Positions 19,068 through 63,400 of a stretch of DNA of 64,000 bases are shown here, one piece after another. Within the stretch, counting starts at the first letter, position 1. Every line of letters starts with the position of its first letter. Source of the stretch: Burkholderia plantarii. GTDB lineage: Bacteria; Pseudomonadota; Gammaproteobacteria; Burkholderiales; Burkholderiaceae. Location: positions 2,852,001 to 2,916,000 of the forward strand of contig NZ_CP007213.1 in NCBI RefSeq assembly GCF_001411805.1, given 5' to 3'. A model generated the notes under the pieces. That model did no database searches, had not been told where the DNA came from, and saw nothing but the letters and a program-made list of their open reading frames with translations. A program made the translations under genes and the position numbers.

Positions 19068-19259
19068 AGATATCTCCACAACGCAGCCAGGCCGGGGCTG
19101 CGATCGAGGCGACATGATCGGAGCATGCGGGATGCACGATCATGGCCGGGTTGCACATTGGACGATTACCGGTGTGCCGCGTCGATGCATTGCGCACTGA
19201 AGCAGTGCCGCGATTCACGACGCCGATGCACGAAACCGCTTTTTAGAGGGATGCGGAAT

Positions 19260-19571: not shown

Positions 19572-19882
19572 CTGCCGATGGCACCGTCGCCAATGGTGTC
19601 GACGGCGGCTTCCACGACGCGCGTGACGCGCGCCGCACGCATGGCCCTCACTGCGGGCAGCGCGCGTGACGAATGGCGTTCGGAAAGTGAGGAAAGCGAA
19701 CCAGCGGAACCGGCGAGGCAGGAGCGAGAGGCGATGCCGGAGGGCAATGACGCCCGGAACTTCCAGAGCAGGTTGCCGGGCATCGCGTCGTCGCGCATGT
19801 CGCCGTACCGGCCGCTAGAGGTCAGGCTTCGTGGCGGGAATTGCAGGACTTGGAGAGTGCGGGGGCCTTCGGGCTGCGGGGA
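19572..19882. other. Gene-free stretch between AT-rich patch and sigma-factor gene
   Basis: About 310 bp. Open frames here lack recognisable motifs and ribosome sites. The sequence returns to normal high GC at its left edge. I see no terminator, repeat or RNA gene. Confidence 0.5.
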
Positions 19883-36096: not shown

Positions 36097-37842
36097 TCAC
36101 GGCGCGAACCGCATCCGGTATTCGCGCGGGCTGCAGCCGGTGATGCGCTTGAAGCAGCGCTCGAAGTGGCTCAGGTCGGCGAAGCCGAGCCGGATCGCGA
36201 CGTCGGACACGCGCACCATGCGCGATTCGCAGAGCAGGTCGCGCGCGCGCTGCACCCGCATGTGCTGGAGCAGGGTCTTGAAGTTCACGCCGAGATGGCG
36301 CCGGAACAGCGCGGTGAGATGCGAGGCGCTGGTACACGCGGCGGACGCGAGGTCGGGCTGGGTCAGCGGATCGCAGTAGTGCGCCGCGAGATGGCGCAGC
36401 GCGCGCACCAGCGCCCGCGGCAGCATCGCCTCCGCCTCGCCGCCCGCGCCGTGCTCGGTCTGCAGCACGTAGTGCGCCCACGACGAGGGCGTGCGCGGCA
36501 GCGCGCGCGCGTCGGCGCTCGCGTGGCGCTCGCCGGATCCGGCAGCCGGACTCGCGACGACGGGCGCGTCGCCCGCGAGCGGCGCCGCGTCGGGCGCGGC
36601 CGGCGCCAGCAGCAACGGGGCCGGCGCCGCCAGGCCGCGCGCGCGATCGATCGCGGCAACCGGCGCGGCCGCGGGCGCGAGGTCGCTGAGCCGCACGCTG
36701 CGGTCCTGCACCGACAGCGCCAGCTGCGCGGCCAGCCGCGTCAGTTCGAGCTGGTTTTCCGGCCAGGCGCGGCGCTCGAGCGACTGCCACGCGTCGTCGT
36801 CGCAATGCAGTTCGATGTCGTGGCCGACGCACTGGCAGACGTGCGAGAACAGCGCGCGCAGATCGTCGATGCGCGCGCGCAGCGGCGGCACGTGGAGTTC
36901 GACGAGACTGAGCTCGGCCATCAGCGCGCGCGGCAGCGCCAGCGCGCTCATCAGCTGCTCGGCGCGCGCGAGCCCCGACGAGACCAGATGGCAGGCCTCC
37001 CCCTTGGCGGGCGAACTCGCCCACTGCCCGAGCCGCGACGGCAGATAGCCGGGCAGCTCGCACAACAGCGCCGGGTCCATGTCCTGGATGCCGTTGATGT
37101 AGAGCGTGCCGCCCTTGGCGCGCGCGAACCATTCGGCCGGCGAGCCTTCGGGATGCGCGCCGCGGATCTCGACGAACGGCGCGTCGACGCCGCAGCGAAA
37201 CACATGCAGCGCGCCTGCCACCGAACTCGGGTCGGTGCCGAACTCGCCGGCGAGGTAGACCGGGAAATGGCTGCGCACGGCCACCTCGAGATGCTCGGTG
37301 AAGCGCTGGATCGCGCGGCCCGCGCCCACCCACAGCGTGGAGCGCGCCATCGGCCCGAGGTTCGCCGCCTGGAACGTGTGCCGCAGCACCACCCAGCGCA
37401 GCCGCCGCACCAGCTCGGCGACCAGCGCCGAGGTGTTCGCGTCGGTGCCCGCGCCCGGCAGCCAGAACAGCTGCAGCGTGCCGAGCCGGCGGCCGGCGAA
37501 GCGCAGCACGAGCGTCTCGGCGGCGCGCTCGGCGAGCGTGCCGGCGCCGCAGGCCATGCCGGTGGCCGACCAGCACAGCGGCGGCTGGGCCACCGTCGGG
37601 CCGGGCGGCGCCCAACTGCTGCCGGCGCCGCCCTGCTCCAGGTTCAGCATGATCTCGCTGACCGGCAGCCAGCCCTTCACGTTGCCCAGCAGCGTGGACA
37701 GGAACGCGCTGTTGTCCCCGCCCCGCGCGACCGATTCCTGCCATAGGGCTTCCAGTTCGTCCGTGGTTGGCAGAGGCAACATCGCATTCGTCTCCGAAAT
37801 GATCTGCCTTGGTCTCTCGTACTCAAGCTGCGTCTTCATCAT
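36097..37842 (-). CDS. Regulator with degenerate sigma-54-activator AAA domain and AraC-type HTH
   Basis: A 581-residue protein. Residues ~190-270 resemble the AAA core of NtrC-type activators but with the catalytic residues lost. Walker A GETGTGKE appears as GEFGTDPS (~200, no Lys), and Walker B GGTLFLDEI appears as GGTLYINGI (~245, Asp and Glu lost). The C-terminal ~100 residues are an AraC HTH (DVAIRLGFADLSHFERCFKRITGCSPREYRMRF) in place of the usual Fis-type HTH. It probably binds DNA but cannot hydrolyse ATP. It lies downstream of the reb genes on the same strand and may control them. A start at 37782 after GGAG is an alternative. Confidence 0.75.
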   Translation of the reverse strand: MMKTQLEYERPRQIISETNAMLPLPTTDELEALWQESVARGGDNSAFLSTLLGNVKGWLPVSEIMLNLEQGGAGSSWAPPGPTVAQPPLCWSATGMACGAGTLAERAAETLVLRFAGRRLGTLQLFWLPGAGTDANTSALVAELVRRLRWVVLRHTFQAANLGPMARSTLWVGAGRAIQRFTEHLEVAVRSHFPVYLAGEFGTDPSSVAGALHVFRCGVDAPFVEIRGAHPEGSPAEWFARAKGGTLYINGIQDMDPALLCELPGYLPSRLGQWASSPAKGEACHLVSSGLARAEQLMSALALPRALMAELSLVELHVPPLRARIDDLRALFSHVCQCVGHDIELHCDDDAWQSLERRAWPENQLELTRLAAQLALSVQDRSVRLSDLAPAAAPVAAIDRARGLAAPAPLLLAPAAPDAAPLAGDAPVVASPAAGSGERHASADARALPRTPSSWAHYVLQTEHGAGGEAEAMLPRALVRALRHLAAHYCDPLTQPDLASAACTSASHLTALFRRHLGVNFKTLLQHMRVQRARDLLCESRMVRVSDVAIRLGFADLSHFERCFKRITGCSPREYRMRFAP

Positions 37843-38101
37843 ATGGCCCCGTAACACGCTTCGTGCCGATCGCACCGCAACGTTCCGGAGTGCAGAACAG
37901 TTCACGCGACGACGTCGGCATGATTCATTTGATTCCGTCCGATCTCTCTCACCTCGAACGGCAGCTCCGGCCAGACCATGCGAATGCGCACAACGATGCC
38001 GATCGCGCTCGCAAGGCGGCAACTCCCAGGACAATCAGATCGCCGGCGTGCGCAGGTGATCGGAGTGTGACGTCCGCGCCCGCTCCGGGCCGCCGCTCGG
38101 G

Positions 38102-38137
38102 CCGCCGGTGCCGCGCGGTCCGCCGGTGCCGCGCGGT
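38102..38137. repeat. 18-bp tandem repeat, two copies
   Basis: Two identical adjacent copies of CCGCCGGTGCCGCGCGGT in the gap downstream of the reb genes. Confidence 0.85.
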
Positions 38138-38153
38138 CCGGCGTTCGCGCCGC

Positions 38154-38198
38154 GGCCGGATCGGCGTGGCATGGCACACACGCCACGCCGATCCGGCC
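38154..38198. repeat. Long perfect inverted repeat downstream of the reb genes
   Basis: Arms of 17 bp (38154-38170 and 38182-38198) pair perfectly around an 11-nt loop. There is no T run on either strand. It may act as an RNA stabiliser or terminator for the leftward reb transcripts. Confidence 0.8.
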
Positions 38199-38326
38199 TC
38201 CCGCGATCACGCGCGAGGCCCGCCGTCATGCGGATCGCCGGCACCGGCGCCGGTATGCGACGGCCAGCGGCGCGCCCCGCGAGCACGACGACGATGCTCG
38301 CGCCGCCGCGAGGCCGGGCGCGCGCC

Positions 38327-38869
38327 TCAGCTCCGGCCGCCTTTACCCGTGCCCGAACCCGCCCCCGAACCGGCGGTACCCGCCACCGCGTTCTGCACGC
38401 TCTGATCGCTGCCTTGCGTGGCCGTCACCGCGGCCGGTACCCCGCCTGCCGCGTTCGACGCGAGTTTCTGCGTCACCTGCGTGAGCTGCTGCTCGGTCAT
38501 CTGCATCGCGCTCGTGATCTGCTGCCGGGCGGTCTGCATCGCCTGCGCCATCGCGCTCTCGTACTGCCGGATGTTCGCCTCGACCAGCTGCTGCGCGCCG
38601 GCGACCGCGACCTGCGCCTGCCGGGTCGCCGCCGTGACGGCGGCATACGGATCGGGCACGGCGGCCGGTGCCGAGGTGGCGGGCGCGGCGGGGGCCGAGG
38701 CCGCCGTCGCGGCATCGCCCGACGGGGAAGACGACGCGGACGACGACGGCGGCGCGGACGAGGCCGGCGACGAAGCCGGCGCGGCGGCCGGCGGCGACTT
38801 CGCGGCCGGTGCCGTGGCGGCCTGCGTCGCCGCCGACGGCTTCTGACTGGAGGAACTGGCTTTGGTCAT
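38327..38869 (-). CDS. Hypothetical reb-locus protein, Ala/Ser/Pro-rich with helical core
   Basis: A 180-residue protein. The first ~80 residues are almost only Ala, Ser, Pro and Thr, so disordered. The next ~75 form a long amphipathic helix (RQAQVAVAGAQQLVEANIRQYE; AMQTARQQITSAMQMTEQQLTQVTQKL) followed by a Gly/Ala-rich tail. No family is recognised. The helical part resembles the Gln/Ala-rich helices of the RebB-family proteins. AAAGG lies before the ATG. It is the last gene of the leftward reb block, 26 bp after the preceding stop, so it likely acts in R-body assembly or control. Confidence 0.65.
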   Translation of the reverse strand: MTKASSSSQKPSAATQAATAPAAKSPPAAAPASSPASSAPPSSSASSSPSGDAATAASAPAAPATSAPAAVPDPYAAVTAATRQAQVAVAGAQQLVEANIRQYESAMAQAMQTARQQITSAMQMTEQQLTQVTQKLASNAAGGVPAAVTATQGSDQSVQNAVAGTAGSGAGSGTGKGGRS

Positions 38870-38895
38870 GGTGGCCTTTCGGAACAAGGAGAGAG

Positions 38896-40092
38896 TCATG
38901 CCGCGTACCCGAGCGCGAAATCATCGAGCGAGGCGCTCGACGACGGGGTGGTTTGCGATTGCGTGCCGCCGCTCTTGTCGGCGCTCTTGCCGCCGGGCGC
39001 GGGCGTCGCGCCCGACGTGCCCGACGATCCGCCGGACGCCGCGCCCGGCGAGGTGTCGGCGATGAAATCGTCGAGCGAGATCACGCCGTGCTTGTCGAGG
39101 CACAGCACCGCGCCCTGCGTGCCGCGGCGCAGCTCGTAGGAACAGGTGCGGCCGTCCTGCCCCATCCGCGCGGACACGCTGGTGACCGACGACAGCAGGA
39201 TCTGCGCCGCCGTGGTGTAGCGCCAGAGCGCGGTGCGCACGTCGGGCTCGCTGCCCCCCGGATAGCCGGTGCGCTGGATCATGCGCAGCGCGCCGAGCGA
39301 GAGCCGTGAAAAACCGAGCTGGCGCGATTGCGCATACCAGTCGCGCACCACCTGCACGACCGTGTCCGGCGTCGGCAAGCCGCGCAGCTGCGGCCCTTCC
39401 AGGCTGCCGAACAGCTCGGGCAGCGTGGCGTGCAGCAGCGTCTGCGCCTGCGCGGCGAGGTTGCGGGCCGACAGCACCTGGTGAAAGCGCAGGTAGTCGA
39501 CGAACTCCATCGGCGTGCGCGCCTCGGCGGCGGCGAACGCGGCCGAGGCCTGCGTCCCGGCCGGCGTGCTCGGCGCCTCGTTCGCGTCGGCGCTGGTGCT
39601 GCTCGGCACCGTGCGCATCAGTTCGACCAGCGCGCCGGCGTCGTCGAGCGACAGGCACTGGAACACCGGGCTCGTGTCGATGCCGAGCTGGCCGAGCCAG
39701 GTCGGCAGCGCGGCGAGGTCGGCGCGGCGCACCAGCTTGTGCCGCACCAGCAGGCTCGCCAGCTGGTTCTCCAGCACCGGGTCGGGCCCGGCCTTGCCCT
39801 GCGCCTCGACGCTCGTCAGCGTCTGCAGGTCGTTGCCGTCCATCGTCATCAGCTTGGCGGGACTCACCAGCAGCTCCGACACCGGCAGCAGGCACAACGG
39901 ATCGCCATGCAGGCCCTGCTGCACGGCGCACAGCATCTGGGTTTCATCGGGCAGCCTGAAATGCTGCCCCGGCGACTGGATCGCCCATTGCAGCCACTGG
40001 ACTCCGCCGTCGATCAGGCTCAAACAGGAGCGCGCCGAAGCGGATAGCCGGGAGGGCTGCTGGATTTGGCTCGCAGCGATATGCAGCGTCAT
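38896..40092 (-). CDS. Hypothetical R-body-locus protein
   Basis: A 398-residue soluble protein without a recognised family. It has an N-terminal helical domain (QWLQWAIQSPGQHFRLPDETQML; CLLPVSELLVSPAKLMTMDGNDL), a middle part with WLGQLGIDTSPVFQCLS and VDYLRFHQVLSARNLAAQAQ, a beta-rich segment (CSYELRRGTQGAVLCLDKHGVISLDDF) and a Ser/Gly tail. It is encoded between small reb-type genes on the same strand with a 20-bp gap on one side and 26 bp on the other. A scaffold, chaperone or regulator of R-body formation is possible; this is inference from position only. Confidence 0.65.
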   Translation of the reverse strand: MTLHIAASQIQQPSRLSASARSCLSLIDGGVQWLQWAIQSPGQHFRLPDETQMLCAVQQGLHGDPLCLLPVSELLVSPAKLMTMDGNDLQTLTSVEAQGKAGPDPVLENQLASLLVRHKLVRRADLAALPTWLGQLGIDTSPVFQCLSLDDAGALVELMRTVPSSTSADANEAPSTPAGTQASAAFAAAEARTPMEFVDYLRFHQVLSARNLAAQAQTLLHATLPELFGSLEGPQLRGLPTPDTVVQVVRDWYAQSRQLGFSRLSLGALRMIQRTGYPGGSEPDVRTALWRYTTAAQILLSSVTSVSARMGQDGRTCSYELRRGTQGAVLCLDKHGVISLDDFIADTSPGAASGGSSGTSGATPAPGGKSADKSGGTQSQTTPSSSASLDDFALGYAA

Positions 40093-40112
40093 GGAAACGT
40101 CTCCGTCGTCGA

Positions 40113-40460
40113 TCAGCCTGCGGGGAATTCTTTGAGCAGCGCCGCCGCGGTGCTGCTGATCTGGCCGAAATCGCTCGACGCGGAGGTGACGAGCGACTGC
40201 GCCTGCTGCAGCACCGTGACGTATTTCGCGTCGCCGGTGGCGAGCAGCTGCGCCATGGCCACGCCGGCCGCCGTGGTGGCGATCGTGGCGATGTTGCGCA
40301 GCGCGTCGGTGGCGTCCTGGATCGCGATCGCCGACGATTGCGCGACCGCCTGGTAGGCCTTGCCGGCGCCGCTCGTGAGCACCACCTGCGGGCTCATCGT
40401 CGCCAGTTGCGACTGGTTGATCACATCGACCACTTGAGGATTCACATTCGGGGTACTCAT
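40113..40460 (-). CDS. RebB-family-like R-body protein, divergent (115 aa)
   Basis: A 115-residue helical protein beginning MSTPNVNPQVVDVINQSQLAT, which parallels the VNPQITDAV/VNDQITDSV start of RebB proteins. Ala/Gln-rich helices follow (AYQAVAQSSAIAIQDATDAL; VAMAQLLATGDAKYVTVLQQAQSLV). The similarity is in the N-terminal block and composition, so assignment to the RebB superfamily is probable, not certain. It is in the leftward reb block, 20 bp before the 398-residue gene. Confidence 0.6.
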   Translation of the reverse strand: MSTPNVNPQVVDVINQSQLATMSPQVVLTSGAGKAYQAVAQSSAIAIQDATDALRNIATIATTAAGVAMAQLLATGDAKYVTVLQQAQSLVTSASSDFGQISSTAAALLKEFPAG

Positions 40461-40591
40461 CGATAACTCCGTAGCGTGGGCATCGCGCCGGACTTCAGCC
40501 GGGCCGCGGCATCACTGCGATGACGAATTCGGCGCCGGCGTTCATGTCGCGCCATTGCCGGACGATTGTCGGTTCGGGCCGGACCCGCTTC

Positions 40592-41203
40592 CTATTTCCC
40601 GGTCGAAGTCGACGTGCTCGACGCACTCGAGGTGCCCGTCGAGGTGGAGGTGCTCAGCGACGTCGACAGGCTCACGGAACTCGAGGCCCCCGTCGACGCC
40701 GAGGTGCCCGACGAGGTCGACTGGCTCGTCGAGGTGGAGGCGGACGACACGCCGCCCTGGAGCTTGGTCGACAGGTTCTGCATGTCCTGCTGCGCCTGGG
40801 TGGCGGTGATCTGCGCCAGCTGCGCCTGGGTCTGCAGCGTGGCCAGCGCGGCCTGCGCCTGCGCGTTGGCCGCGGCCACCACGGCGGCGGGATCGGCCGG
40901 CGCGGGCGGCCCGGGCAGCGGCTCGATGCCCGGCGGCGGCTCGGCGGCCGGCGGCGGCGCCGGCTTGAGGTCGAACGGCACGCTCAGCATCTTCGCGCAG
41001 GCCGTCGTGACGGCGGCCGCGCTCATCATGCCGGAGCCCTGCTGCCGGTTGACCGCGTTGTACATCGCGATGCCGAGCGTTTCCAGCAGCACCGCGTCCA
41101 GCATGCCGAACGCCTGTGCCGGCGCCTGCCCGGTGGCGAGCGTAACGATGCTGGCGTTGGCATCGATGATCTGACTGTTGACCGTATCAGGCACGTTGCT
41201 CAT
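40592..41203 (-). CDS. RebB-family-like protein with long Ser/Thr-rich tail
   Basis: A 203-residue protein. Residues 1-80 follow the RebB plan: VNSQIIDANASIVTLATGQAPAQAFGMLDAVLLETLGIAMYNAVNRQQGSG, with helix, Ala-rich helix and conserved QQ. A Pro-rich linker, a Gln/Ala coiled-coil segment (AQAALATLQTQAQLAQITATQAQQDM) and a tail of about 50 residues made almost only of Ser and Thr follow. The tail suggests an accessory subunit with a flexible end. A start four codons upstream is possible. Confidence 0.65.
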   Translation of the reverse strand: MSNVPDTVNSQIIDANASIVTLATGQAPAQAFGMLDAVLLETLGIAMYNAVNRQQGSGMMSAAAVTTACAKMLSVPFDLKPAPPPAAEPPPGIEPLPGPPAPADPAAVVAAANAQAQAALATLQTQAQLAQITATQAQQDMQNLSTKLQGGVSSASTSTSQSTSSGTSASTGASSSVSLSTSLSTSTSTGTSSASSTSTSTGK

Positions 41204-41232
41204 GTTCGATTCCATTCAATGAGGTTGATCCA

Positions 41233-41442
41233 TCACGACGACTGCCCGCCCGAGGCCGACGCCAGTATCTTGGCGAGCACCTGCGCCAGCGCCGCTTCGC
41301 CCAGCACCTGCCCGCGCTGCTGGCTGGCGACGGCGTTGGCCATCGCCAGCGCGATGCTGTCGGCCATGGCGAGGTAGGTCATCCCCATGGCGGCGGAAGG
41401 CGCCAGCGCGACCGGCAGCCCGTCCGGTTCGGCGATGCTCAT
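41233..41442 (-). CDS. Short RebB-like protein (69 aa)
   Basis: A 69-residue protein whose core AAMGMTYLAMADSIALAMANAVASQQRG matches the central block of the neighbouring RebB proteins (AIAMGNLFQATAQALANAAHNATNAQQQS) in spacing and character. The N-terminal ITDSVTQ block is missing and replaced by a Pro-containing leader, so it is a shortened relative. It lies 29 bp before the next gene of the leftward block. Confidence 0.6.
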   Translation of the reverse strand: MSIAEPDGLPVALAPSAAMGMTYLAMADSIALAMANAVASQQRGQVLGEAALAQVLAKILASASGGQSS

Positions 41443-41508
41443 GATCGCGGCGTCACCCGCCGCCCGATTTCACGGCCGGGCCGGGACCTTGCATGGCGTC
41501 CGCGGGCG

Positions 41509-41781
41509 TCAGACCAGGCCGAGGATCTTCTGCGAGACGACCCCCGTGGTGGCGGTCTCCATGCCCAGCAGCGTCGAGATCCCCTGCGTGGTGCTGGTCT
41601 GCATCGTCACGTAGGACTGGTTCTGGTTGTTGGTCGCGTTGTGCGCGGCGTTCGACAGCGCCTGGCCGGTGGCGACGAACAGGTTGCCCATGGCGACCGC
41701 CGGCGCGGTGCCCACGACCTCGGTATTGGCCTGGGAAACCGAATCGGTGATCTGGCTGTTGACTGCGGTAGGAAAAGCCAT
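41509..41781 (-). CDS. rebB: RebB family R-body protein, copy 6
   Basis: A 90-residue RebB-family protein: MAFPTAVNSQITDSVSQANTEV, then APAVAMGNLFVATGQALSNAAHNATNNQNQSYVTMQ and a C-terminal TLLGMETATTGVVSQKIL. It is the most divergent of the six full-length copies, differing mainly after the central helix. RebB-type proteins polymerise into R-bodies, coiled protein ribbons that extend with a change of pH. GGAG precedes the ATG. Confidence 0.85.
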   Translation of the reverse strand: MAFPTAVNSQITDSVSQANTEVVGTAPAVAMGNLFVATGQALSNAAHNATNNQNQSYVTMQTSTTQGISTLLGMETATTGVVSQKILGLV

Positions 41782-41817
41782 CGTGATTGCTCCGTTTCAA
41801 GAGAAGGGGGACCGGAC

Positions 41818-42090
41818 TCAGGCGGCGGCGAGAACCTTCGCCGTCGCCATGCCGGTCGCGCTCGTGTCCAGCGAATACAGCAGCGAGACGCCCATGGTCG
41901 TCGCGGCCTGCGCGGTCACGTACATCTGCTGCTGCGCCATGGTCGCGTTGTGCGCGGCGTTGGCCAGCGCCTGCGCCGTGGCCTGGTAGAGATTGCCCAT
42001 CGCGATGCTGGCGGCGACGCCCAGCACCTGCACGTTGGACTGGGTGACCGAATCGGTGATCTGATCGTTGACGGTGGTCGGGAAGGCCAT
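41818..42090 (-). CDS. rebB: RebB family R-body protein, copy 5
   Basis: A 90-residue RebB protein with VNDQITDSVTQSNVQVLGVAA, IAMGNLYQATAQALANAAHNAT and MAQQQMYVTAQAATTMGVSLLYSLDTSATG. It shares the three blocks of its neighbours but replaces GDAP by GVAA and ends in Ala-rich sequence. CAGGAG lies upstream of the ATG, and 36 bp separate its stop from the next start. Confidence 0.87.
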   Translation of the reverse strand: MAFPTTVNDQITDSVTQSNVQVLGVAASIAMGNLYQATAQALANAAHNATMAQQQMYVTAQAATTMGVSLLYSLDTSATGMATAKVLAAA

Positions 42091-42118
42091 GAAGACGTCT
42101 CCTGGTAGGCGCTAGGCG

Positions 42119-42388
42119 TTACGCGTTGAGGATCTTCGTCGTCGCCACGCCGGTGCTGGCCGTATCGATCGAGTACAGCGTCGCGACGCCCATCGTGGTG
42201 GCCGTCTGCGCCGTCACGTAGCTCTGCTGCTGCGCGTTGGTGGCGTTGTGCGCGGCGTTGGCGAGCGCCTGCGCCGTGGCCTGGAACAGGTTGCCCATCG
42301 CGATGGCCGGCGCGTCGCCGAGCACCTTGGTGTTGGCCTGCGTGATCGAATCGGTGATCTGGTCGTTGACGGCGGTCGGAAATGCCAT
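42119..42388 (-). CDS. rebB: RebB family R-body protein, copy 4
   Basis: An 89-residue RebB protein nearly identical to copies 2 and 3 over the first 58 residues (QITDSITQANTKVLGDAPAI; LFQATAQALANAAHNATNAQ). Changes concentrate in the C-terminal third (TAQTATTMGVATLYSIDTASTG). It is a structural subunit candidate of the R-body ribbon. AAAGGAGT is a strong ribosome site, suggesting high expression. Confidence 0.9.
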   Translation of the reverse strand: MAFPTAVNDQITDSITQANTKVLGDAPAIAMGNLFQATAQALANAAHNATNAQQQSYVTAQTATTMGVATLYSIDTASTGVATTKILNA

Positions 42389-42434
42389 GGTCTGACTCCT
42401 TTCTTCAGTTAGGTGGATACGACTGCGGGACTAC

Positions 42435-42704
42435 TCAGCTGTTGAGGATCTTCGAGGTCGCGATGCCGTCGGCCGCCGTGTCGAGCGAATAGAGCGTGGA
42501 CACGCCCATCGTGGTGGCGGCCTGGGACGTCACGTAGCTCTGCTGCTGCGCATTGGTGGCGTTGTGCGCGGCGTTGGCCAGCGCCTGCGCCGTGGCCTGG
42601 AACAGGTTGCCCATCGCGATCGCGGGCGCATCGCCCAGCACTTTGGTGTTGGCCTGCGTGACCGAATCGGTGATCTGGTCGTTGACGGCGGTCGGGAATG
42701 CCAT
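42435..42704 (-). CDS. rebB: RebB family R-body protein, copy 3
   Basis: An 89-residue RebB protein with the standard blocks VNDQITDSVTQANTKVLGD, IAMGNLFQATAQALAN and QQQSYVTSQAATTMGVSTLYSLDTAADG. It is nearly identical to copies 2 and 4 in the N-terminal two thirds, which points to recent tandem duplication or gene conversion. AAAGGAGT precedes the ATG. Confidence 0.9.
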   Translation of the reverse strand: MAFPTAVNDQITDSVTQANTKVLGDAPAIAMGNLFQATAQALANAAHNATNAQQQSYVTSQAATTMGVSTLYSLDTAADGIATSKILNS

Positions 42705-42747
42705 GGTGTGACTCCTTTCAGTTGGGTGAGGACGGTAACGGCGCTAC

Positions 42748-43017
42748 TCAGCTCTTGAGGATCTTCGAGGTGGCGATGCCGTCGGTGGCCGTGTCGATCG
42801 CGTAGAGCGTCGCGACGCCCATCGTGGTGGCGGCCTGGGACGTCACGTAGCTCTGCTGCTGCGCGTTGGTGGCGTTGTGCGCGGCGTTCGCGAGCGCCTG
42901 GGCCGTGGCCTGGAACAGGTTGCCCATGGCGATCGCGGGAGCGTCGCCCAGCACCTTGGTGTTGGCTTGCGTGACCGAATCGGTGATCTGACTGTTGACT
43001 GCGGTGGGAAAGGCCAT
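42748..43017 (-). CDS. rebB: RebB family R-body protein, copy 2
   Basis: An 89-residue RebB protein: VNSQITDSVTQANTKVLGD, then the same AIAMGNLFQATAQALANAAH block and TSQAATTMGVATLYAIDTATDG. It differs from copy 3 at only about seven positions. CAGGAG precedes the ATG, and a 45-bp spacer follows the preceding gene, similar to the other spacers. Confidence 0.9.
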   Translation of the reverse strand: MAFPTAVNSQITDSVTQANTKVLGDAPAIAMGNLFQATAQALANAAHNATNAQQQSYVTSQAATTMGVATLYAIDTATDGIATSKILKS

Positions 43018-43062
43018 GTGGGGTCTCCTGGATTAAGCGTTGGTTACAAAGATGCCGGCGAA

Positions 43063-43353
43063 TCAGCCGCCGAGGCCCTTCACGCCGGTCTTCAGGATCT
43101 GGCTCGTGGCGACGCCGTCGGTCGCCGTGTCGATCGCGTAGAGCGTGGCCACGCCCATCGTCGTGGACGACTGCGAGGTCACGTAGCTCTGCTGCTGCGC
43201 GTTGGTGGCGTTGTGCGCGGCGTTGGCGAGCGCCTGCGCCGTGGCTTGGTAGAGGTTGCCCATCGCCATGGCCGGCGCGTCGCCCAGCACTTTCGTGTTG
43301 GCTTGCGTGACCGAATCGGTGATTTGATCGTTCACGGAGGTGGGAAATGCCAT
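43063..43353 (-). CDS. rebB: RebB family R-body protein, copy 1 (first of the tandem)
   Basis: A 96-residue RebB protein with the standard three blocks (VNDQITDSVTQANTKVLGD; MAMGNLYQATAQALANAAH; TSQSSTTMGVATLYAIDTATDG) and a unique C-terminal extension ending KTGVKGLGG. It is the first gene of the leftward reb block, so the block promoter should lie in the 541-bp gap upstream. ACAAGGAG is a strong ribosome site. Confidence 0.9.
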   Translation of the reverse strand: MAFPTSVNDQITDSVTQANTKVLGDAPAMAMGNLYQATAQALANAAHNATNAQQQSYVTSQSSTTMGVATLYAIDTATDGVATSQILKTGVKGLGG

Positions 43354-43894
43354 TTGCAGCTCCTTGTGTAAGTCGGAATGGATTCACCGATATCGGCGAA
43401 GAATTCGACACGCGGCGAATTTTCGTTCCGGCGATGTCTTGGGGCAAAGTCTATGAATTGAGCCCCGGCAAAGCTTGAAGAAACCAATGGATATGGCGAA
43501 CCGGGAATTCGCGCGAAAACGCGTCGCCGCCACGAAAATGCGGTTTCGGCAGTGCATGGATTCGTCGGATGTGATGATTTAGCGCGAAACTAATTGATCC
43601 GCGCCCCGAATGGCGCCGCCGCGAGCCCCGACCGTCAAGGCGCGGGCCCTTTTTGATTTGGCCGACGCGGGCGGATTTCGCCATCGCACGCGCCCTCCGG
43701 CCGGCGCGAAACCGCCGCGCGGCACGGCCCTTGCCATGCAGCACGCCATTTATTGGCAAACGCGCTTATTTCGACGGCCTTTCACACGCCGCATTCGCAA
43801 GAAAATGCCCGAGGACAATCGATTCGTTCAAGACCTGAATATCGACGGTCCCTAGACTGAGCCCGGTGATATGTCATTTACCGAGCGAACGACC
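43354..43894. promoter_or_regulatory. Divergent promoter region of the reb locus
   Basis: About 540 bp between the leftward rebB tandem and the rightward lipoprotein gene. Open frames crossing it lack family features. The stretch 43360-43600 is more AT-rich than coding DNA and should carry the rebB promoter, but I find no clear -35/-10 or -24/-12 element for that direction. The rightward sigma-54 match is listed separately. Confidence 0.6.
43720..43735 (+). promoter_or_regulatory. Candidate sigma-54 promoter of the lipoprotein-DUF1906 unit
   Basis: CGGCACGGCCCTTGCC keeps the invariant GG and GC with 10 bases between and matches TGGCACG-N4-TTGCW except at the first and last positions. It faces the lipoprotein gene 160 bp downstream. 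In GC-rich DNA chance matches occur, so confidence is moderate. Confidence 0.5.
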
Positions 43895-44335
43895 ATGAAA
43901 CGGCATGCCCCCTTTTGTCTCGTCCTGTGTTGCGCGATCGCCGGCGGATGCAGTCCGATTCCCTACGACGCCCGCGCCGACCAGCAGATCGAGACGCTGA
44001 CGCGCGACCTCGATTCCCGCGTGATCGCCTGGCGCATCCGGGCCGAGGACGGCGGCGCCGCGATTCCCTACGACGCCGGCTTCTACGCCGCGATCGAGGC
44101 GCAGCTGGCCGGGCTGCGGATCAGGATCGGCGCCGCCGCCGGCCGCTCGAACCAGGACATCGGCACGACGCTCGCCAGCCTCGGCGACCAGATCGACCGC
44201 CTGCGCCGCCTGCATCGCCAGCAAAACACGCTCGACGCGCCGTTCCTCGCCGCCGAGCTGCAGCTGCTGAACGCCCAGCTTTCCACCCTCACCACCTATG
44301 AGCTGGCGCTGAAGAACGGCGCGCCGGCCCGCTGA
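43895..44335 (+). CDS. Hypothetical lipoprotein of the R-body locus
   Basis: A 146-residue protein with a lipoprotein signal peptide (KRHAPFCLVLCCAIAGGC, Cys at residue ~19). The periplasmic body is helical with DQQIETLTRDLDSRVIAWRIRAE and LGDQIDRLRRLHRQQNTLDAPFLAAELQLLNAQLSTL, so probably a coiled-coil bundle. No family is recognised. It starts the rightward unit opposite the rebB tandem and may link R-bodies to the envelope. An upstream in-frame ATG would spoil the signal peptide. Confidence 0.65.
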   Translation: MKRHAPFCLVLCCAIAGGCSPIPYDARADQQIETLTRDLDSRVIAWRIRAEDGGAAIPYDAGFYAAIEAQLAGLRIRIGAAAGRSNQDIGTTLASLGDQIDRLRRLHRQQNTLDAPFLAAELQLLNAQLSTLTTYELALKNGAPAR

Positions 44336-44358
44336 CCCCCACCAGGAAATCCGCCCTC

Positions 44359-44676
44359 ATGACCACCAACTGGAACACCGCCCTCGACGACGCCACCCGC
44401 GCGGCACGCACCAGCCTCGCGGGCGCCTGGGACGCGGTTGCCGAAAGCGCCCCGCCCCGCATCGCGGAACTGACCGCCGCCGCGCAGTACATCGCCGAGC
44501 ACGAACAGGAGATGACGCGCGACGAGGCGCAGCTGCTCGCGAGCCAGTATCAGGAGGCGCTGCGCAACGTGCTGCTCGCCGGGCAGGCGATCGACGAGGC
44601 CGCCGCGCACAACGCCGTGGTGGCCGTGATGTGCAGCCTCGCGGGCGCGGCGCCCGCGCTCGCGCGCTTCGTCTAG
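44359..44676 (+). CDS. Hypothetical small helical protein of the R-body locus
   Basis: A 105-residue, mostly helical acidic protein (NTALDDATRAARTSLAGAWDA; EHEQEMTRDEAQLLASQYQEAL) ending in a hydrophobic helix AVVAVMCSLAGAAPALARFV that could insert in a membrane. In size and charge it could be a small chaperone, pore or immunity-type partner; none can be shown. It begins 23 bp after the lipoprotein stop with AGGAAA upstream, so the two are co-transcribed. Confidence 0.6.
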   Translation: MTTNWNTALDDATRAARTSLAGAWDAVAESAPPRIAELTAAAQYIAEHEQEMTRDEAQLLASQYQEALRNVLLAGQAIDEAAAHNAVVAVMCSLAGAAPALARFV

Positions 44677-44750
44677 CGGCCGGGCCGGCGCCGCGTGCGG
44701 TTTTCAACCAATCATTTCGTTTTACTTATTAAAAATCAGGAGGATACAGG

Positions 44751-45449
44751 ATGAACTTCCATGCGGGATTCGACACCGACCAGTTCCCGGGGCTCGCGCA
44801 GCTGCAGTGGCTCAAGTCCAACACCAACCTCGCCTGGTGCGGCTACTACCTCGCGCCGGCGCCCAGCCACGACGACCGGAGCTGGATGGGCAACCGCGCC
44901 GCGCTGCTCGCGCAGGGCTGGGGCCTGCTGCCGATCTTCCTCGGCCAGCAGACCATCGGCCCGGGTTCGCACGACGTACACGGCGGACAGGGCAGCACGG
45001 ACGGCCTGGCCGCCGTGCAGCTGATGCACGACGAGGGCTTTCCCGCGCGCAGCTACGTGTTCATCGACTGGGAGGACGGCAGCGCGCTCGGCGCCGACTC
45101 GAAGGACTACCTCACCGCATGGGTCACGGCCGTCAACGCCGCCGGCTATCAGCCGGGCATCTACTGCTCGCACGACCTGGCCGGCGCGATGGCGGCGATT
45201 CTCGCCGGCGTGCAGCCGCCCTGCGACGGCCGCATCTGGGCCTGGAAGGTGGGGCAAGCCAATACGCATGACTACGCCTGCGCCCCCGACGGGTTTCCGT
45301 GCGCGGACCCGACGCTGTGCGGCTACGACGCCGCGGTCGCCTGGCAGTGCGAGCAGAACTGCGTGCTGTCGCTGCCGGGGGCGCCGAGCGAAACGATGTC
45401 GGCGGACCTGAGCACGTCGAGCCTGGCGGACCCGTCGGCGGCGGCGTAG
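44751..45449 (+). CDS. DUF1906 glycoside-hydrolase-like protein (Rv2525c-type)
   Basis: A 232-residue protein with the DUF1906 TIM-barrel plan: FHAGFDTDQFPGLAQLQWL at the start, WCGYYLAPAP, GLLPIFLGQQTIG, YVFIDWEDG with the acidic residues expected at the active site, GYQPGIYCS and IWAWKVGQA. Relatives are lysozyme-like GH25 neighbours thought to act on cell-wall glycans. No signal peptide is visible. It has a very strong AGGAGG site. Its place next to rebB genes suggests a role in lysis or wall opening for R-body release; this is inference. Confidence 0.8.
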   Translation: MNFHAGFDTDQFPGLAQLQWLKSNTNLAWCGYYLAPAPSHDDRSWMGNRAALLAQGWGLLPIFLGQQTIGPGSHDVHGGQGSTDGLAAVQLMHDEGFPARSYVFIDWEDGSALGADSKDYLTAWVTAVNAAGYQPGIYCSHDLAGAMAAILAGVQPPCDGRIWAWKVGQANTHDYACAPDGFPCADPTLCGYDAAVAWQCEQNCVLSLPGAPSETMSADLSTSSLADPSAAA

Positions 45450-58791: not shown

Positions 58792-59653
58792 TAGAGCGTG
58801 TTATGCAATTTTCTAGCTGACCTTGGTCGAAGCTGGATGGAAAAACGCCGCGCTTACCCAAGCGATGTAACGGATGAAGAATGGGGCTTCGTGGCGCCCT
58901 ATCTGACCTTGATGAAAGAGAACGCCCCGCAGCGGCAATACGAACTGCGAGAGCTGTACAACGCGCTGCGCTGGCTGGCCCGCGCAGGCGCGCCGCGGCG
59001 GTTGCTGCCAACCAATTTCCCGCCGTGGGAAGCCGTTTATCAGCAAACACAGCGATGGCTTCGCGCCGGGTGTTTTGAAGCGATGACCGACGATCTGCGC
59101 TCGATCATTCGCGTCGCGCAAGCGCGTCAGGGCCAGCCCAGCGCGGTCATTCTCGATGGGAGAACGCTTCAGTCCACATGCGAAAGCGGTCAGCGCGCAG
59201 GATACGACGGCTACAAACGCAAGCGTGGCAGCAAAACGCATATCGCTGTCGACACATTGGGACATCTGCTGGCCGTCTACATCACGCCAGCCGACGAGCA
59301 AGAGTGGGCCAAGGTTCAGGAACTGGCGCAACAAGTCCAGCAAGCCACGGGCAACACGGTAAAACTCGCTTTCGCGGACCAAGGCTACACCGGCAAGGAT
59401 GCGGCATCGGCCGTGAGCGCCGAAGGCATCGAGTTGCAGATCGTCAAACTACCCGAAGCGAAGAAAGGCTTTGTGCTTTTGCCACGACGCTGGGTGGTCG
59501 AGCGCAGCTTCGGCTGGCTCAATCGCTTTCGCAGGCTGGCGCGTGATTACGAGCGTCTGCCTGAAACGCTGGCCGGCTTGCACTTCGTCGTCTTTGTCTC
59601 GTTGATGCTCGCTCGCGCTACTCAGTATTTTTGAAAGTGCATAACACGCTCTA
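58792..59653 (+). mobile_element. IS5-family insertion sequence, intact
   Basis: An 862-bp element bounded by perfect 16-bp inverted repeats (TAGAGCGTGTTATGCA and its complement) and holding one transposase gene. Outer flanks read TTAG on the left and CTAG on the right, compatible with the YTAR target of IS5 elements but not an identical duplication. Composition is clearly less GC-rich than the chromosome. It lies at the edge of the Rhs toxin module. Confidence 0.92.
58837..59634 (+). CDS. IS5-family transposase
   Basis: A 265-residue DDE transposase. The N-terminal HTH domain (SDVTDEEWGFVAPYLTLMKE) is followed by the catalytic residues: first Asp in AVILDGRTLQST, second Asp in LAFADQGYTGKDA and Glu in RWVVERSFGWLNRFRRLARDYE (the Y-(2)-R-(3)-E-(6)-K-type region with Arg). 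No stop or frameshift is visible, so the element may be active. The preceding codons extend the frame into the inverted repeat, but the ATG of MEKRRAYP is the usual start. Confidence 0.93.
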   Translation: MEKRRAYPSDVTDEEWGFVAPYLTLMKENAPQRQYELRELYNALRWLARAGAPRRLLPTNFPPWEAVYQQTQRWLRAGCFEAMTDDLRSIIRVAQARQGQPSAVILDGRTLQSTCESGQRAGYDGYKRKRGSKTHIAVDTLGHLLAVYITPADEQEWAKVQELAQQVQQATGNTVKLAFADQGYTGKDAASAVSAEGIELQIVKLPEAKKGFVLLPRRWVVERSFGWLNRFRRLARDYERLPETLAGLHFVVFVSLMLARATQYF

Positions 59654-59828
59654 GGGTTCCCGAAGTCGTCGAACAGGTAGCGATTCGAGGCGGGCCATAC
59701 CTTCGAATCGGGCACCTTGCAGAACACCAGGTAGACGGTCAACAACTCGGAGGACGTGATCAAGCGCTGCCGCCCCTCGTCCAGCCCGGCTCGCCGTGTT
59801 TATCGAACGCAGCCTCGATCAAGGCCAT
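59654..59828 (-). pseudogene. Truncated and frameshifted immunity-like gene
   Basis: The frame from 59828 gives MALIEAAFDKHGEPGWTRGG and stops. Inserting one base in the TGGACGAGG stretch joins it to RLITSSELLTVYLVFCKVPDSKVWPASNRYLFDDFGN in the next frame, which runs straight into the right inverted repeat of the insertion sequence. So the gene has a one-base deletion and has lost its 3' end. Its position 36 bp after the Imm11 gene suggests a second immunity gene; the family is not recognised. Confidence 0.55.
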
Positions 59829-59864
59829 GCCGCCTCGTGGCCTTGAGAAGCGGAAATGAAACAC

Positions 59865-60428
59865 CTAACTTTCAGAAGAAATTGATACCACTTCTCCGAA
59901 ATCGAACCCCTTCAGCTTGCTTTCCTCAACGAGGCCTTTGAATTTTTCGGAGACAAATACTGTCGCGGGGCTTTCCTTCAGCCTGAATATATCGACATCC
60001 CGAACCTGATGTTCCAAAAGAACAATTTTATTGAAAATCGTGGCTTGAGGATAGACCTTGTATTTGGACTTCTCCATGTCGACGGCGCCCTCAAGCGCTC
60101 TGGTCACGTGAAAACCCAGCATGTCTTCCGCTGGCGTCTCGACCGGCAGCACTTCTCCTGCCCCTTGAAGCAGCGGGCTCAATGCGTCGAAAGATTTCTT
60201 GCTGAATACAAGAAATGGCGACAGCAGGGTGTGAATATCACTGTTTTTCTTTCGTCGGGGAGAACCCCATGAAAGCTCGACGGGCTTGTACTCCTCCCCG
60301 AACGCTCGTCCACACCGGGCAGTTGCACGTATGGCTATGCTCGTGTCGTACGCAACTTCGCCCTCGCTGTCGACCTGCACCAGCGCCTGATATGCATCGT
60401 CCTGCCTCAAACCATATACAGTAGTCAT
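59865..60428 (-). CDS. Imm11-family immunity protein
   Basis: A 187-residue protein matching the Imm11 (formerly DUF1629) plan: FLVFSKKSFDALSPLLQGAGEVLPVE in the centre, HVTRALEGAVD, then DIFRLKESPATVFVSEKFKGLVEESKLKGFDFGEV. It should bind and block the AHH nuclease tip of the Rhs protein encoded directly upstream. The start lies 7 bp after the Rhs stop (or a GTG directly at the stop), so production is coupled. Composition is much more AT-rich than the Rhs core, typical of exchanged toxin/immunity tips. Confidence 0.82.
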   Translation of the reverse strand: MTTVYGLRQDDAYQALVQVDSEGEVAYDTSIAIRATARCGRAFGEEYKPVELSWGSPRRKKNSDIHTLLSPFLVFSKKSFDALSPLLQGAGEVLPVETPAEDMLGFHVTRALEGAVDMEKSKYKVYPQATIFNKIVLLEHQVRDVDIFRLKESPATVFVSEKFKGLVEESKLKGFDFGEVVSISSES

Positions 60429-60434
60429 ACGCAC

Positions 60435-63400
60435 TCACAATTCAGAAAGAACGGACTTCCATGGCATATCCCTGGAGGCATTTTGCAACGTCTCCCTTAT
60501 AGTTTGAAGCTGATCAAGAACGGCTTGTTTGCCGCCCAAGTCGGCATTCTGAATAAGTTGGTTGACCTTTTGGAAGTAAGTATTTGGATGCTTGCCATTG
60601 TGCAATATCCCCGCGAGATCGTCGGAATTGTTTCGATTCGGCAAGAACACGCCATTCAATTCGGAATCTACATCAATGCCATATTTTGAGAGAATGGCGC
60701 GAGCCGGCGCAGCTTCTTTCGAAGTATCTCCCACGATATGGTGTGCTGCCGAGTTTGCCGGGCGCGTGACGCCCGATTTCTCCATATTGTTGCTCAATTT
60801 GACCGAACACCAACCCCACGGATCGATCCATCGTTGGGCGTTGCGGCCGTAGGCGTATAAATTCTCCCCGCCGTACAACCCGATCGGGTCCTGACCGACA
60901 AACCGCCCGACATCCGGATCATAAAACCGGAATGTGTTGTAGTGCAGCCCCGTGCTTTCGTCGGCGTACTGCCCAGCGAATCGCAGCGGTTGCTCTGTCC
61001 GCGCGGTCGGCAGCAGGCCCGCATCCGTCTCGACCCTGCCCCAGGCATTGTAGCGCCCGGCCCAGGCGAGCTCACCCGCCTCGTCCGTCATCTCGAGTGG
61101 CGCGCCTACCAGGTCGGTATGGAAGTGATAGATCCGGGCCGGCCGCCGCGCCTGCTCGATGGCGGCGGCGGCCATCGCCTCGGCCAGCATGGCATCGACC
61201 CGCGCCGCAGGCGTGTAAGGCGCATCCGGGCTGTACACGTAGCTGCTCACGCCGGTGTCGCGCACCTCCTGCGCGAGCCGCAGCCCTTCCCATACGAACC
61301 GCTTCGTTTCCTCGCGCAGCGTTACGCCGCGCACGTCGAGCGTCGTATCGGTCTTGGCGATGCGCCGCCCGAGCGGATCGTAGGCGAAACGCGTCTCCAC
61401 CACCCCACGCGCGCCCTGCGTGCGCACGGCCACGAGCCGATCCTGCCCGTCGTACGTGAACTGCTGGCGCTGATTCGCGCCGCGCAGCTTGGTCGCGAGA
61501 TTGCCGAACGCGTCGTAGTCGAAGCGCAGGTTCTGCCACATGCGCAGCCGGTTGCCCTCGACATAGCCGCGGCTGCTGCGTTGCGCATCGTCGAGCAGGT
61601 TGCCGGCGGCGTCCCAGGCGAACGATTCGAGCTGCCGGTCGGCGGTGTTGACGCGCTGCGTCAGATAGCCGGCCGGATCGTAGCTGAACTGCGTGCTGCC
61701 GCGCAGGCTGTCGTGGCTCTCGGCCAGTTCGCCGGCGGCGTCGTAGCCATAGTTGCGCCACAGCTGGCCTTGCCCCCGCGCAAGCGCGTCGGGCCGGAAG
61801 CCGGACGATTGCCAGATCTTGCGGCCCAGCAGGTCATAGGCGGTGCGCTCGGTCAGGCGGCCCTGCGTGCGCGTCAACTCGCGATGCAGGTCGTCGCGCT
61901 CGAAATCGCTGACGACCTGGTCGCCGTGGCGAATCTGGTGCACGTGCCCCGAGCCGTAGCGCAGCATCTGCAGCGTCTGCTCGTGTGGCAAGGCGAGCTT
62001 CATCACGTGGTCGAGCCCGTCGAGCGTGTATCGGACGCTGCCGTTCGCGCCGTGTTCGGCGGTCAGCCGCCCGGCCTTGTCGTATTCGAACGTCAGCGTG
62101 TCGGGCGCGATGCCGAGCGCCAGCCCGGCCGCGGTCGGCACGCTCGCGACTTCGAGCAGGCGGCCGCCGGTGTCGCGCGCGTAGCGCGTCACCTCGGTAG
62201 GCGTGTGCTGCACGCACAGGTTGCCCATCCGGTCGCGTTCGAAGCGGATCGTGCGCACCGGGCGATCGTTTGGAGCGCGATCCTCGGCCGTACCGACGAT
62301 CTCGAGCGCCACCAGATCGCCGGCCTCGCCGTATTCGAAGCGGCGCAGCACGCCGTCGGGCCGCGTTTCGCTGGTGAGCCGCCCGCCTGCGCTGTATGCG
62401 AACGCGTAGCGCGCGTGCCCCTGTTGCAGCTCGCGCAGGCGCCCCTCGGCGTCATAGTGGTAGCGGGTTCGCCGCCCGGCCGGATCGACCGCCTCGACGA
62501 GTTGCCCGCGCGCATTGCGCAGCAACGTCTGCGTCCGGCCGCCCAGCCCGATGTGCCGGATCATCAGCCCGGCGGCGTCGTATTCGTAGCTTTCGGAACT
62601 GCCGTCGGGATAGGTGACCCGGCGCGCCTCGCCGGTCGGGCGCAGGTCGAACGACACGCGGTGCCCGAGCGCGTTCTCGCGCGCGAGCGGCAGGCCGAAT
62701 GCATCGAAAAAATTGCGCGTGGTCTTGCCCGAGCAATCGGTGTAGGCCACCAGCTCGCCGAGCCGGTTCCACTCGAACGTCTTGCGCCCGCCCAGCGCAT
62801 CGACATGCGCCACCGGCAGCGCGCTCAGTGCCTTCGGATATTCGTAGCGATTCTCCCGGTCGAGCGGATCACGGGTGGCCAGCAGCCGGCCCTGCCGGTC
62901 GTATTCGGCGTGCCAGGCGCTGCCGTCGGGCAAGATGATTTCGACGGGCCGCATGCTGTTGCCGTCGTAGCGCGTTTTCGTGGTGCGACCGAGGGGATCG
63001 GTTTCGGCAACGATGCGGCCGGCGTCGTCGTACTCGAACATCACGGTTCGTTCGCCGGGCAGCGTCAGCATCACGGGCATGCCGGCATCGTTGTACTTGA
63101 GCCCGTAGCGACGGCCGTCGAAATCGAGGTACTCGACGATCTGGAATTGCGCGTCGTAGCGCCATTGCGCGTGGCGGCCGTCGGCATGCCGCACATGGGT
63201 GCGGCGGCCTTCGATGTCGTACTCGAACGCCCAGGCCTCGCCCTCGCTGGTGTGGGTGGCGACCACTCGCGGCGTGCCGTCGATGGCCTTCCACGTATAG
63301 CCCGACGTGAAACCGAGCGCGTTCGAATGGCTCGTCATGCGCCCGTCGGCATAGGTGAAGCGGCGCACTACCGCGCCGTTCGCGTCGGTCACGGAGGCCA

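What the first reader, a model, noticed from the sequence alone, without database searches (positions are those of the whole stretch)
38327..45449. R-body (reb) locus with six tandem RebB paralogues, five novel accessory genes and a divergent lysis-like unit
Six short proteins share the RebB blocks VNDQITDSVTQ, IAMGNLFQATAQALANAAHNAT and QQQSYVT. R-bodies are coiled protein ribbons that extend on acidification and were described from Caedibacter and later in free-living proteobacteria. Here the tandem is expanded and joined by a 203-aa Ser/Thr-tailed relative, 69- and 115-aa relatives, a 398-aa and a 180-aa unknown protein, and a divergent lipoprotein/helical protein/DUF1906 unit. The combination suggests a self-contained production and release system that I cannot match to a described locus.
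Basis: partly seen in the sequence, partly recalled or inferred. Interest (0 to 1): 0.92.

Follow-up and report, generated by a model that had tools for sequence, protein, structure and literature searches.

The report
R-body gene locus with linked enzymes
This is a genuine R-body locus (genes for a coiled protein ribbon that springs open) of an already described layout, but related loci in other bacteria sit beside varying enzyme- or toxin-like genes, which are candidates for the never-identified toxin that R-bodies are thought to release.

Summary
The six tandem proteins are RebB (PF11747, E 1.3e-27 to 7.4e-31). The 69- and 203-aa proteins are also RebB family; the 115-, 398- and 180-aa proteins match no family above a cut-off. 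The "novel accessory genes" are not new: size, order and homology fit the published Group 1 synteny HP1.1-HP1.4 (Raymann 2013). Less expected is what surrounds them. An AraC-type regulator with a decayed sigma-54-like AAA domain (36097-37839) stands beside 17 of 20 distinct loci compared (the other three are partial). Twelve of the 17 carry extra genes at the operon end that differ between lineages: VasX_N, phospholipase D, HNH-like, NUDIX, DUF1906 and, in Azospirillum, an unknown 1155-1707-aa protein. In the window this slot is empty, but the divergent unit holds a DUF1906 protein modelled as a GH25-muramidase fold with an invariant DxE. In the genus, 8 of 10 DUF1906 hits lie within 10 kb of RebB (about 0.05 expected). 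Delivery of these enzymes is inferred, not shown. The divergent unit is not a complete lysis cassette. HP1.1 is homologous to the C-terminal part of eCIS_core proteins. Verdict: known system, new variant-level insight that makes the R-body toxin question testable.

The parts
43063..43353 (-). reb1, RebB-family R-body protein, 96 aa, first gene of the operon
   Evidence: PF11747 105 bits
42748..43017 (-). reb2, RebB family, 89 aa
   Evidence: PF11747 104.6 bits
42435..42704 (-). reb3, RebB family, 89 aa
   Evidence: PF11747 106.5 bits
42119..42388 (-). reb4, RebB family, 89 aa
   Evidence: PF11747 103.1 bits
41818..42090 (-). reb5, RebB family, 90 aa
   Evidence: PF11747 97.4 bits
41509..41781 (-). 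reb6, RebB family, 90 aa
   Evidence: PF11747 96.1 bits
41233..41442 (-). HP1.4, short distant Reb, 69 aa
   Evidence: PF11747 49.5 bits; size and place as HP1.4 of Raymann 2013
40592..41203 (-). HP1.3, Reb N-terminus with Ser/Thr-rich tail, 203 aa
   Evidence: PF11747 73.3 bits at residues 12-76; as HP1.3
40113..40460 (-). HP1.2, 115 aa, no Pfam family; counterparts in the other loci by tblastn
38896..40092 (-). HP1.1, 398 aa, ordered core plus disordered tail; homologous to the C-terminal part of eCIS_core (DUF4157) proteins
   Evidence: AlphaFold2 pLDDT 83.8; homologues P0017, P0020-P0040, P0042 carry PF13699; P0029 alone against Azospirillum HP1.1
38327..38869 (-). p180, Ala/Ser/Gln-rich protein, helical by eye; positional counterpart of 120-185-aa proteins in other Group-1 loci
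   Evidence: 61% identity to the Bordetella counterpart over 74 aa; composition
37840..38326 (.). empty slot between p180 and regulator (487 nt), where other loci carry 3.5-5.4 kb of variable genes
36097..37839 (-). AraC-HTH regulator with degenerate sigma-54-type AAA domain, 580 aa
   Evidence: Sigma54_activ_2 128.5 bits, HTH_18 82.1 bits; degenerate Walker A, no GAFTGA; 64% to Bordetella, 36% to Eleftheria and G021, 31% to Azospirillum, 27% to G715, HTH part only to Vibrio and Photobacterium
43871..44335 (+). putative lipoprotein, 154 aa (signal and Cys by eye), divergent from reb1
   Evidence: no Pfam or PHROG family, one sub-threshold NCBIfam hit; orthologue only in G015 among the other 64 genus genomes
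44359..44676 (+). 105-aa protein, helical by eye, no clear membrane segment
44751..45449 (+). DUF1906 / Rv2525c-like protein, GH25-muramidase fold, no signal peptide by eye; reb-linked enzyme
   Evidence: PF08924 54.9 bits; model and fold search; D106 and E108 invariant in the 40-row alignment

Best explanation
A Group-1 R-body locus of a Burkholderia-type genome whose effector-like enzyme gene sits on the divergent side. Shown by sequence: six RebB subunits, two Reb-like proteins (HP1.3, HP1.4), HP1.2, HP1.1, p180 and an AraC-type regulator form a module that recurs across genera; variable extra genes, several of them enzyme- or toxin-like, are attached to that module; in the window the attached enzyme is a GH25-like DUF1906 protein. 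Inferred: the regulator switches the operon on in some cells; RebB paralogues co-polymerise into the ribbon with HP1.3/HP1.4 as minor subunits; HP1.1, HP1.2 and p180 act in assembly or in holding the enzyme; the enzyme is made without a secretion signal, stays in the cytoplasm and is released when the R-body unrolls in an acid vacuole and bursts the cell. The linked genes would then be candidates for the 'unknown toxin' of R-bodies. Locus identity is about 0.97 certain, the genetic linkage of enzymes about 0.8, the delivery role about 0.45.
Against: No expression, binding or delivery data exist here. In the window, G015 and Bordetella the slot itself is empty. The Azospirillum slot protein has no known family; its long form has an extra ~550-aa C-terminal part rather than an exchanged one. 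The 10 DUF1906 hits are not independent by descent. One genome (G952) has a window-like DUF1906 (66% identity) and no RebB hit; in the family sample only 6 of 13 DUF1906 hits are reb-linked. In the genus's other reb type the comparable slot is empty in 18 of 20 scored loci. A muramidase is an odd weapon against a protist and would fit self-release at least as well. p180-like proteins are matched between lineages by place only, apart from window-G015-Bordetella, and the G715 one is not Ala-rich (11% Ala).
Confidence: 0.5

Rival explanations
1. Self-release reading: the GH25-like DUF1906 protein with the lipoprotein and 105-aa protein weakens the producer's own wall so that the R-body or its cell is released; no toxin cargo.
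For: Endolysin resemblance: phrog_291 E 7.2e-7, GH25 fold and invariant DxE. A muramidase is also listed in the reb island of Vibrio coralliilyticus (PMC7457808 passages).
Against: No holin-like stretch: the strongest hydrophobic 19-residue window is 1.85 in the 105-aa protein and 1.72 in the lipoprotein signal; no lysis family for either. Lipoprotein in only 2 of 65 genus genomes. Other loci carry phospholipase D, VasX_N and HNH-like proteins at the operon end, which are not wall enzymes.
Confidence: 0.25
2. Bystander reading: a plain Group-1 R-body locus; the divergent unit and the slot genes are unrelated genes at an insertion-prone site.
For: The neighbouring EHN gene is also conserved next to the unit in G015 (91%), so sister-species synteny alone can explain the lipoprotein and 105-aa genes; reb clusters are reported to move horizontally (PMC13430693).
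Against: DUF1906 recurs next to reb in three arrangements (divergent in window and G015; behind the 697-aa gene in G010, G017, G021; inside the Eleftheria slot), plus next to a non-Group-1 cluster in G038. The slot genes of Eleftheria, Azospirillum, G715 and the four genus genomes lie on the reb strand between the reb operon and the regulator.
Confidence: 0.2
3. The locus is inert: reb genes present but no R-body is made (relic).
For: No ultrastructure is known to me for this genome; the promoter scan found no sigma-70 consensus.
Against: All genes are open; identity to G015 is 93-100% for the six Reb proteins, 98% for HP1.2 and 90% for HP1.1, which suggests constraint (no dN/dS was computed).
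Confidence: 0.05

Closest known systems
Group 1 reb synteny of Raymann et al. 2013 (PMC3583457; parts 1-4 of 6 read, plus passages)
   Same: RebB tandem plus HP1.4, HP1.3, HP1.2, HP1.1 with matching sizes and order; the A. brasilense plasmid is one of their examples
   Different: In the parts read and the term search (0 glycoside, 0 phospholipase, 3 'regulator', none of them AraC-type) the AraC-type regulator and the variable neighbour genes are not named; figures were not visible to me
Reb groups of Dorr et al. 2026 (PMC13430693; parts 1-5 of 8 read, plus passages)
   Same: Group 1 with secondary groups S1-S3; many Burkholderia with two clusters, some one group 1 and one group 2, as in this genome
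   Different: The authors set aside non-Reb neighbours on purpose; main text has 0 mentions of AraC, glycoside, effector or phospholipase
reb island of Vibrio coralliilyticus RE22 (PMC7457808; passages seen)
   Same: reb genes with an AraC/AtoC-type regulator of 403 aa and proteins of 1187, 297 and 297 aa, the same sizes as in Vibrio sp. THAF191c L059
   Different: There the 1187-aa protein is listed as hypothetical without domain; in L059 it matches VasX_N and the BTH_I2691 T6SS-effector family. L059 has no HP1.1 match
P. aeruginosa PA14 reb cluster (PMC8322103; part 1 of 7 and passages seen)
   Same: RebB homologues with accessory protein and regulators; linked to a host-damage phenotype
   Different: RebP/RebD, RapA, FecI2 and RcgA instead of HP1.1-HP1.4 and the AraC-type regulator
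Rv2525c / DUF1906 (PF08924) and GH25 muramidases
   Different: 9-18% identity to these chains; no activity shown; no export signal visible

Membership tests
RebB R-body protein family | score above PF11747 gathering cut-off | tested here: met
   8 of 11 operon proteins: six at 96-106 bits, HP1.4 49.5, HP1.3 73.3; cut-off 24
RebB R-body protein family | QITD, KxxxD/E and QQ(Q) motifs of primary Reb proteins (Dorr 2026) | tested here: met
   QITD in 6 of 6; KVLGD in reb1-reb4 (4 of 6, not reb5, reb6); QQQ in 5 of 6 (reb6 has QNQ)
Group 1 reb locus | HP1.1-HP1.2-HP1.3-HP1.4 in order next to reb genes | tested here: met
   sizes and order as in the paper; homologues in the same order on an Azospirillum plasmid: HP1.1 36%, HP1.2 69%, HP1.3 72% over 71 aa, HP1.4 59% identity
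R-body producer | coiled ribbon visible in cells, extends on acidification | not testable with these tools
   needs electron microscopy
GH25-type muramidase | fold and acidic DxE pair | tested here: met
GH25-type muramidase | cuts peptidoglycan | not testable with these tools
   no assay
phage-like lysis cassette | holin with membrane segments | tested here: not met
   no holin-like hydrophobic segment in the 105-aa or DUF1906 protein (hydropathy scan only); no PHROG lysis family for lipoprotein or 105-aa protein
phage-like lysis cassette | endolysin-like enzyme | tested here: met
   phrog_291 E 7.2e-7, phrog_6745 E 6.3e-4 for DUF1906, each over about 50 residues
polymorphic-toxin locus | conserved N-part with exchanged C-terminal toxin domain between strains | tested here: inconclusive
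   in Azospirillum four forms end at about 1155-1174 aa and one goes on for ~550 aa more after a shared 1158-residue part: gain or loss of a C-terminus, not a seen exchange, and no known toxin domain; in the window the slot is empty
polymorphic-toxin locus | cognate immunity gene | tested here: inconclusive
   266-295-aa opposite-strand gene only with the shorter form (absent); two 297-aa proteins behind the Vibrio VasX_N protein; functions unknown
eCIS_core (PF13699) protein | eCIS_core domain in HP1.1 itself | tested here: not met
   window HP1.1 has no Pfam family; only relatives carry the domain
sigma-54 activator | Walker A and GAFTGA loop | tested here: not met
   window has GEFGTDPSS in place of a Walker-A motif; GAFTGA absent in the 5 regulators checked; the G715 one keeps GEFGSGK

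The most novel reading that the evidence does not exclude
R-body loci are general toxin-delivery loci with an exchangeable cargo site: a spring-like polymer module (Reb, HP1.1-HP1.4, small adaptor, AraC-type regulator) to which different enzymes are docked in different lineages (muramidase-like DUF1906, phospholipases, NTase-like, HNH-like, VasX_N). HP1.1, whose relatives are fused to the eCIS_core domain of contractile-injection-system loci, would be a cargo-handling module shared by two unrelated delivery machines. The linked genes would then be the never-identified R-body toxins.
Probability: 0.33. Interest if true: 0.87.

Novelty: new variant of a known kind. Interest (0 to 1): 0.62.

Why it matters
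Papers from 2013 to 2026 still speak of an unknown or unidentified toxin delivered by R-bodies (PMC3583457; PMC7297999; PMC13430693). A recurring module with a bracketed, variable gene slot turns that into a short list of candidate genes in plant-growth-promoting soil bacteria (Azospirillum), whose reb cores are nearly identical while the slot differs, so the question becomes testable by gene removal and mass spectrometry.

Tried and rejected

Rows dropped: 19 Group-1-type records were compared; L089 is identical to L059 over 10.1 kb and L085 has the same gene coordinates and the same protein accessions for the reb-to-regulator genes as L084, so 17 distinct loci are counted. L045, L049 (solitary RebB + HP1.1; L049 is cut by its contig end) and L071 (two Reb plus an HP1.2-like protein) are partial and not scored for the slot. 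Of 25 group-2 loci, L110 has no RapA and L092, L096, L097, L100 have no 148-aa gene, so 20 are scored. Of 17 plasmid hits, I opened 13 (not H13, H15, H16, H17). On recheck I withdrew 'exchanged C-termini' for the Azospirillum protein and lowered the novel-case odds from 0.35 to 0.33 for it.
Full report
WHAT IS THERE. The window holds eleven co-directional genes on the minus strand from 43353 to 38327, with gaps of 20-131 nt. Six encode RebB proteins (PF11747, 96-106 bits, cut-off 24); the 69-aa and 203-aa products are also RebB family; the 115-, 398- and 180-aa products hit no family above a cut-off. After a 487-nt gap follows, on the same strand, a 580-aa regulator with a Sigma54_activ_2 domain and an AraC-type HTH; its Walker A is degenerate and GAFTGA is absent, so it is probably an AraC-type activator, not a sigma-54 one (inference). 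Divergently at 43871-45449 lie a putative lipoprotein, a 105-aa protein and a DUF1906 protein. The genome is 8.08 Mb in 3 contigs and has a second reb cluster about 230 kb away.

WHAT IT IS. Raymann et al. 2013 define Group 1 by HP1.1 (~360 aa), HP1.2 (110-120 aa), HP1.3 (~170 aa, distant Reb) and HP1.4 (60-80 aa, distant Reb), in this order. The window's 398, 115, 203 and 69 aa fit in size and order, and the same order is found by homology in G015, G010, G017, G021, G035, Bordetella genomosp. 13, and in Eleftheria, Azospirillum and G715. The accessory genes are therefore published, and six paralogues lie within the published one to nine. Within the genus, RebB of any type occurs in 33 of 65 genomes.

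THE REGULATOR. A gene with AraC-type HTH and AAA-like part stands beside all 17 distinct Group-1-type loci that are not partial: window, G015, Bordetella, G010, G017, G021, G035, Eleftheria, six Azospirillum loci, G715, Vibrio and Photobacterium (in Photobacterium the AAA part is below cut-off). The window regulator is 64% identical to Bordetella's, 27-36% to those of Eleftheria, G021, Azospirillum and G715, and alike only in the HTH part to Vibrio's and Photobacterium's. None was found at the three partial loci L045, L049 and L071. The Vibrio coralliilyticus paper lists such a regulator; I did not find it named in what I read of the two reb surveys.

THE SLOT. Between the small gene behind HP1.1 and the regulator, or in Vibrio at the far end of the operon, 12 of 17 loci carry extra genes. 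Eleftheria: NUDIX (42.7 bits), DUF1906 (60.4 bits) and a 583-aa protein. G010, G017, G021, G035: a 697-aa relative of that 583-aa protein (38% identity) and DUF1906 copies; in G035 only a C-terminal piece of DUF1906, and in G017 the 697-aa frame shows an internal stop and one DUF1906 copy is split. G715: a 485-aa protein with sub-threshold HNH matches and a 534-aa PLD protein above cut-off. Five of six distinct Azospirillum loci: one protein of 1155-1707 aa without known family, with an opposite-strand 266-295-aa gene when it is the shorter form. Vibrio, which lacks an HP1.1 match: a VasX_N / BTH_I2691-family protein and two 297-aa proteins. Five are empty or without a recognised extra gene: window, G015, Bordetella, Azospirillum Sp7 and Photobacterium (where a transposase-like ORF follows). 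Sp7 keeps about the first 11 nt and a 117-nt inner piece of the big gene, so it seems to have lost it by deletion.

POLYMORPHISM TEST. Among the Azospirillum plasmids Reb1 is 100% identical, HP1.2 99-100%, HP1.1 95.5-98.6%, the regulator 89-98%, but the big slot protein 64-95%; the 1707-aa form shares its first ~1158 residues (64-66%) with the others, which end there, and adds ~550 aa. At DNA level the reb-HP1.1 core is 93.9-96.7% identical with full coverage in 10 of 10 pairs; the slot is 76-91% with 71-89% coverage in 9 of 10 pairs, the exception being the close pair L083/L086 at 96.9% (Sp7 not in the pairs). Fast divergence with presence/absence is what exchangeable effectors would show; a neutral hot spot could also give it, and no exchanged toxin domain was seen.

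THE SECOND CLUSTER. The genome's group-2 cluster has, behind the RapA-like gene, a 399-aa protein and a 658-aa PLD protein (PF13091 above cut-off) before a conserved 148-aa gene. Of 25 genus loci, 20 have both flanking genes: 18 have a 161-527-nt gap, 2 (this genome and G048) carry matches to the 399/658-aa pair, and one more locus without the 148-aa gene keeps a piece of the 399-aa gene. So enzymes are found there too, but rarely.

HP1.1. A profile search finds 22 proteins of 475-513 aa with an N-terminal eCIS_core (PF13699) and an HP1.1-like part (P0020-P0040 and P0042), besides P0017 (only the candidates sharing most words were scored; the profile contained P0017, which matched the window protein alone at 3e-30). 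Independently, P0029 alone matches the HP1.1 of seven Azospirillum records at 33% identity, E 1e-51 to 1e-49, over its residues 127-476. Their genomic context could not be obtained.

MECHANISM AND VERDICT. Shown: a recurring module with linked, variable genes, several of them enzymes. Inferred: polymer assembly, cytoplasmic cargo, release on acid-triggered unrolling. Passages I saw state that R-bodies alone are not toxic and that the toxin is unidentified (PMC7297999), and that a non-Reb operon gene, AZC_3784, is essential for R-body formation in Azorhizobium (PMC5527310), which fits an assembly role for HP1.1/HP1.2 equally well. I rate the locus a new variant of a known kind: ordinary as an R-body locus, interesting for the linked-enzyme pattern.

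Noticed in passing
P0017, P0020-P0040, P0042 (proteins): HP1.1-like region in 23 proteins that also carry an eCIS_core/DUF4157 domain; genomic context unknown.
   Followed up: partly
L010:6791-9971 (G000:C2, second reb cluster): Group-2 reb cluster of the same genome carries a PLD protein and a 399-aa GxSRGA-type protein behind RapA; matches to the same pair in G048, and 18 of 20 scored loci lack it.
   Followed up: yes
L045:8667-10104 and L049:77-801: Solitary RebB gene beside HP1.1 without detected HP1.2-HP1.4 or regulator in two genus genomes (G014, G050; L049 cut by its contig end): a minimal pair or a relic.
   Followed up: partly
L009:4388-6717: Bordetella genomosp. 13 has a 364-aa unknown protein and a PI-PLC-like protein upstream of reb1 on the same strand.
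   Followed up: partly
L059:14696-20052: Vibrio reb locus followed by a VasX_N/T6SS-effector-family protein and two 297-aa proteins that are about 50% identical to each other.
   Followed up: yes
L117:9561-10250: Window-like DUF1906 (66%) in a genome without a RebB hit; its contig length equals that given for a Trinickia fusca protein (P0045).
   Followed up: partly
P0009 and P0069: HP1.1 and DUF1906 homologues of Xanthomonas maliensis are both listed on a contig of 228,321 bases, so probably the same one.
   Followed up: no
L088:23678-24082: An eCIS_core protein about 10 kb from a Photobacterium reb cluster.
   Followed up: partly
L058:1-512: A type VI sheath gene lies about 13.5 kb upstream of the Eleftheria reb cluster.
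   Followed up: no
window 43055-43073 (-): Terminator-like hairpin just behind reb1; shuffles give more such sites than found, so probably nothing.
   Followed up: no
window 19001-20000 and 59001-61000: G+C drops to 0.53-0.59 against about 0.70 around; content not examined.
   Followed up: no
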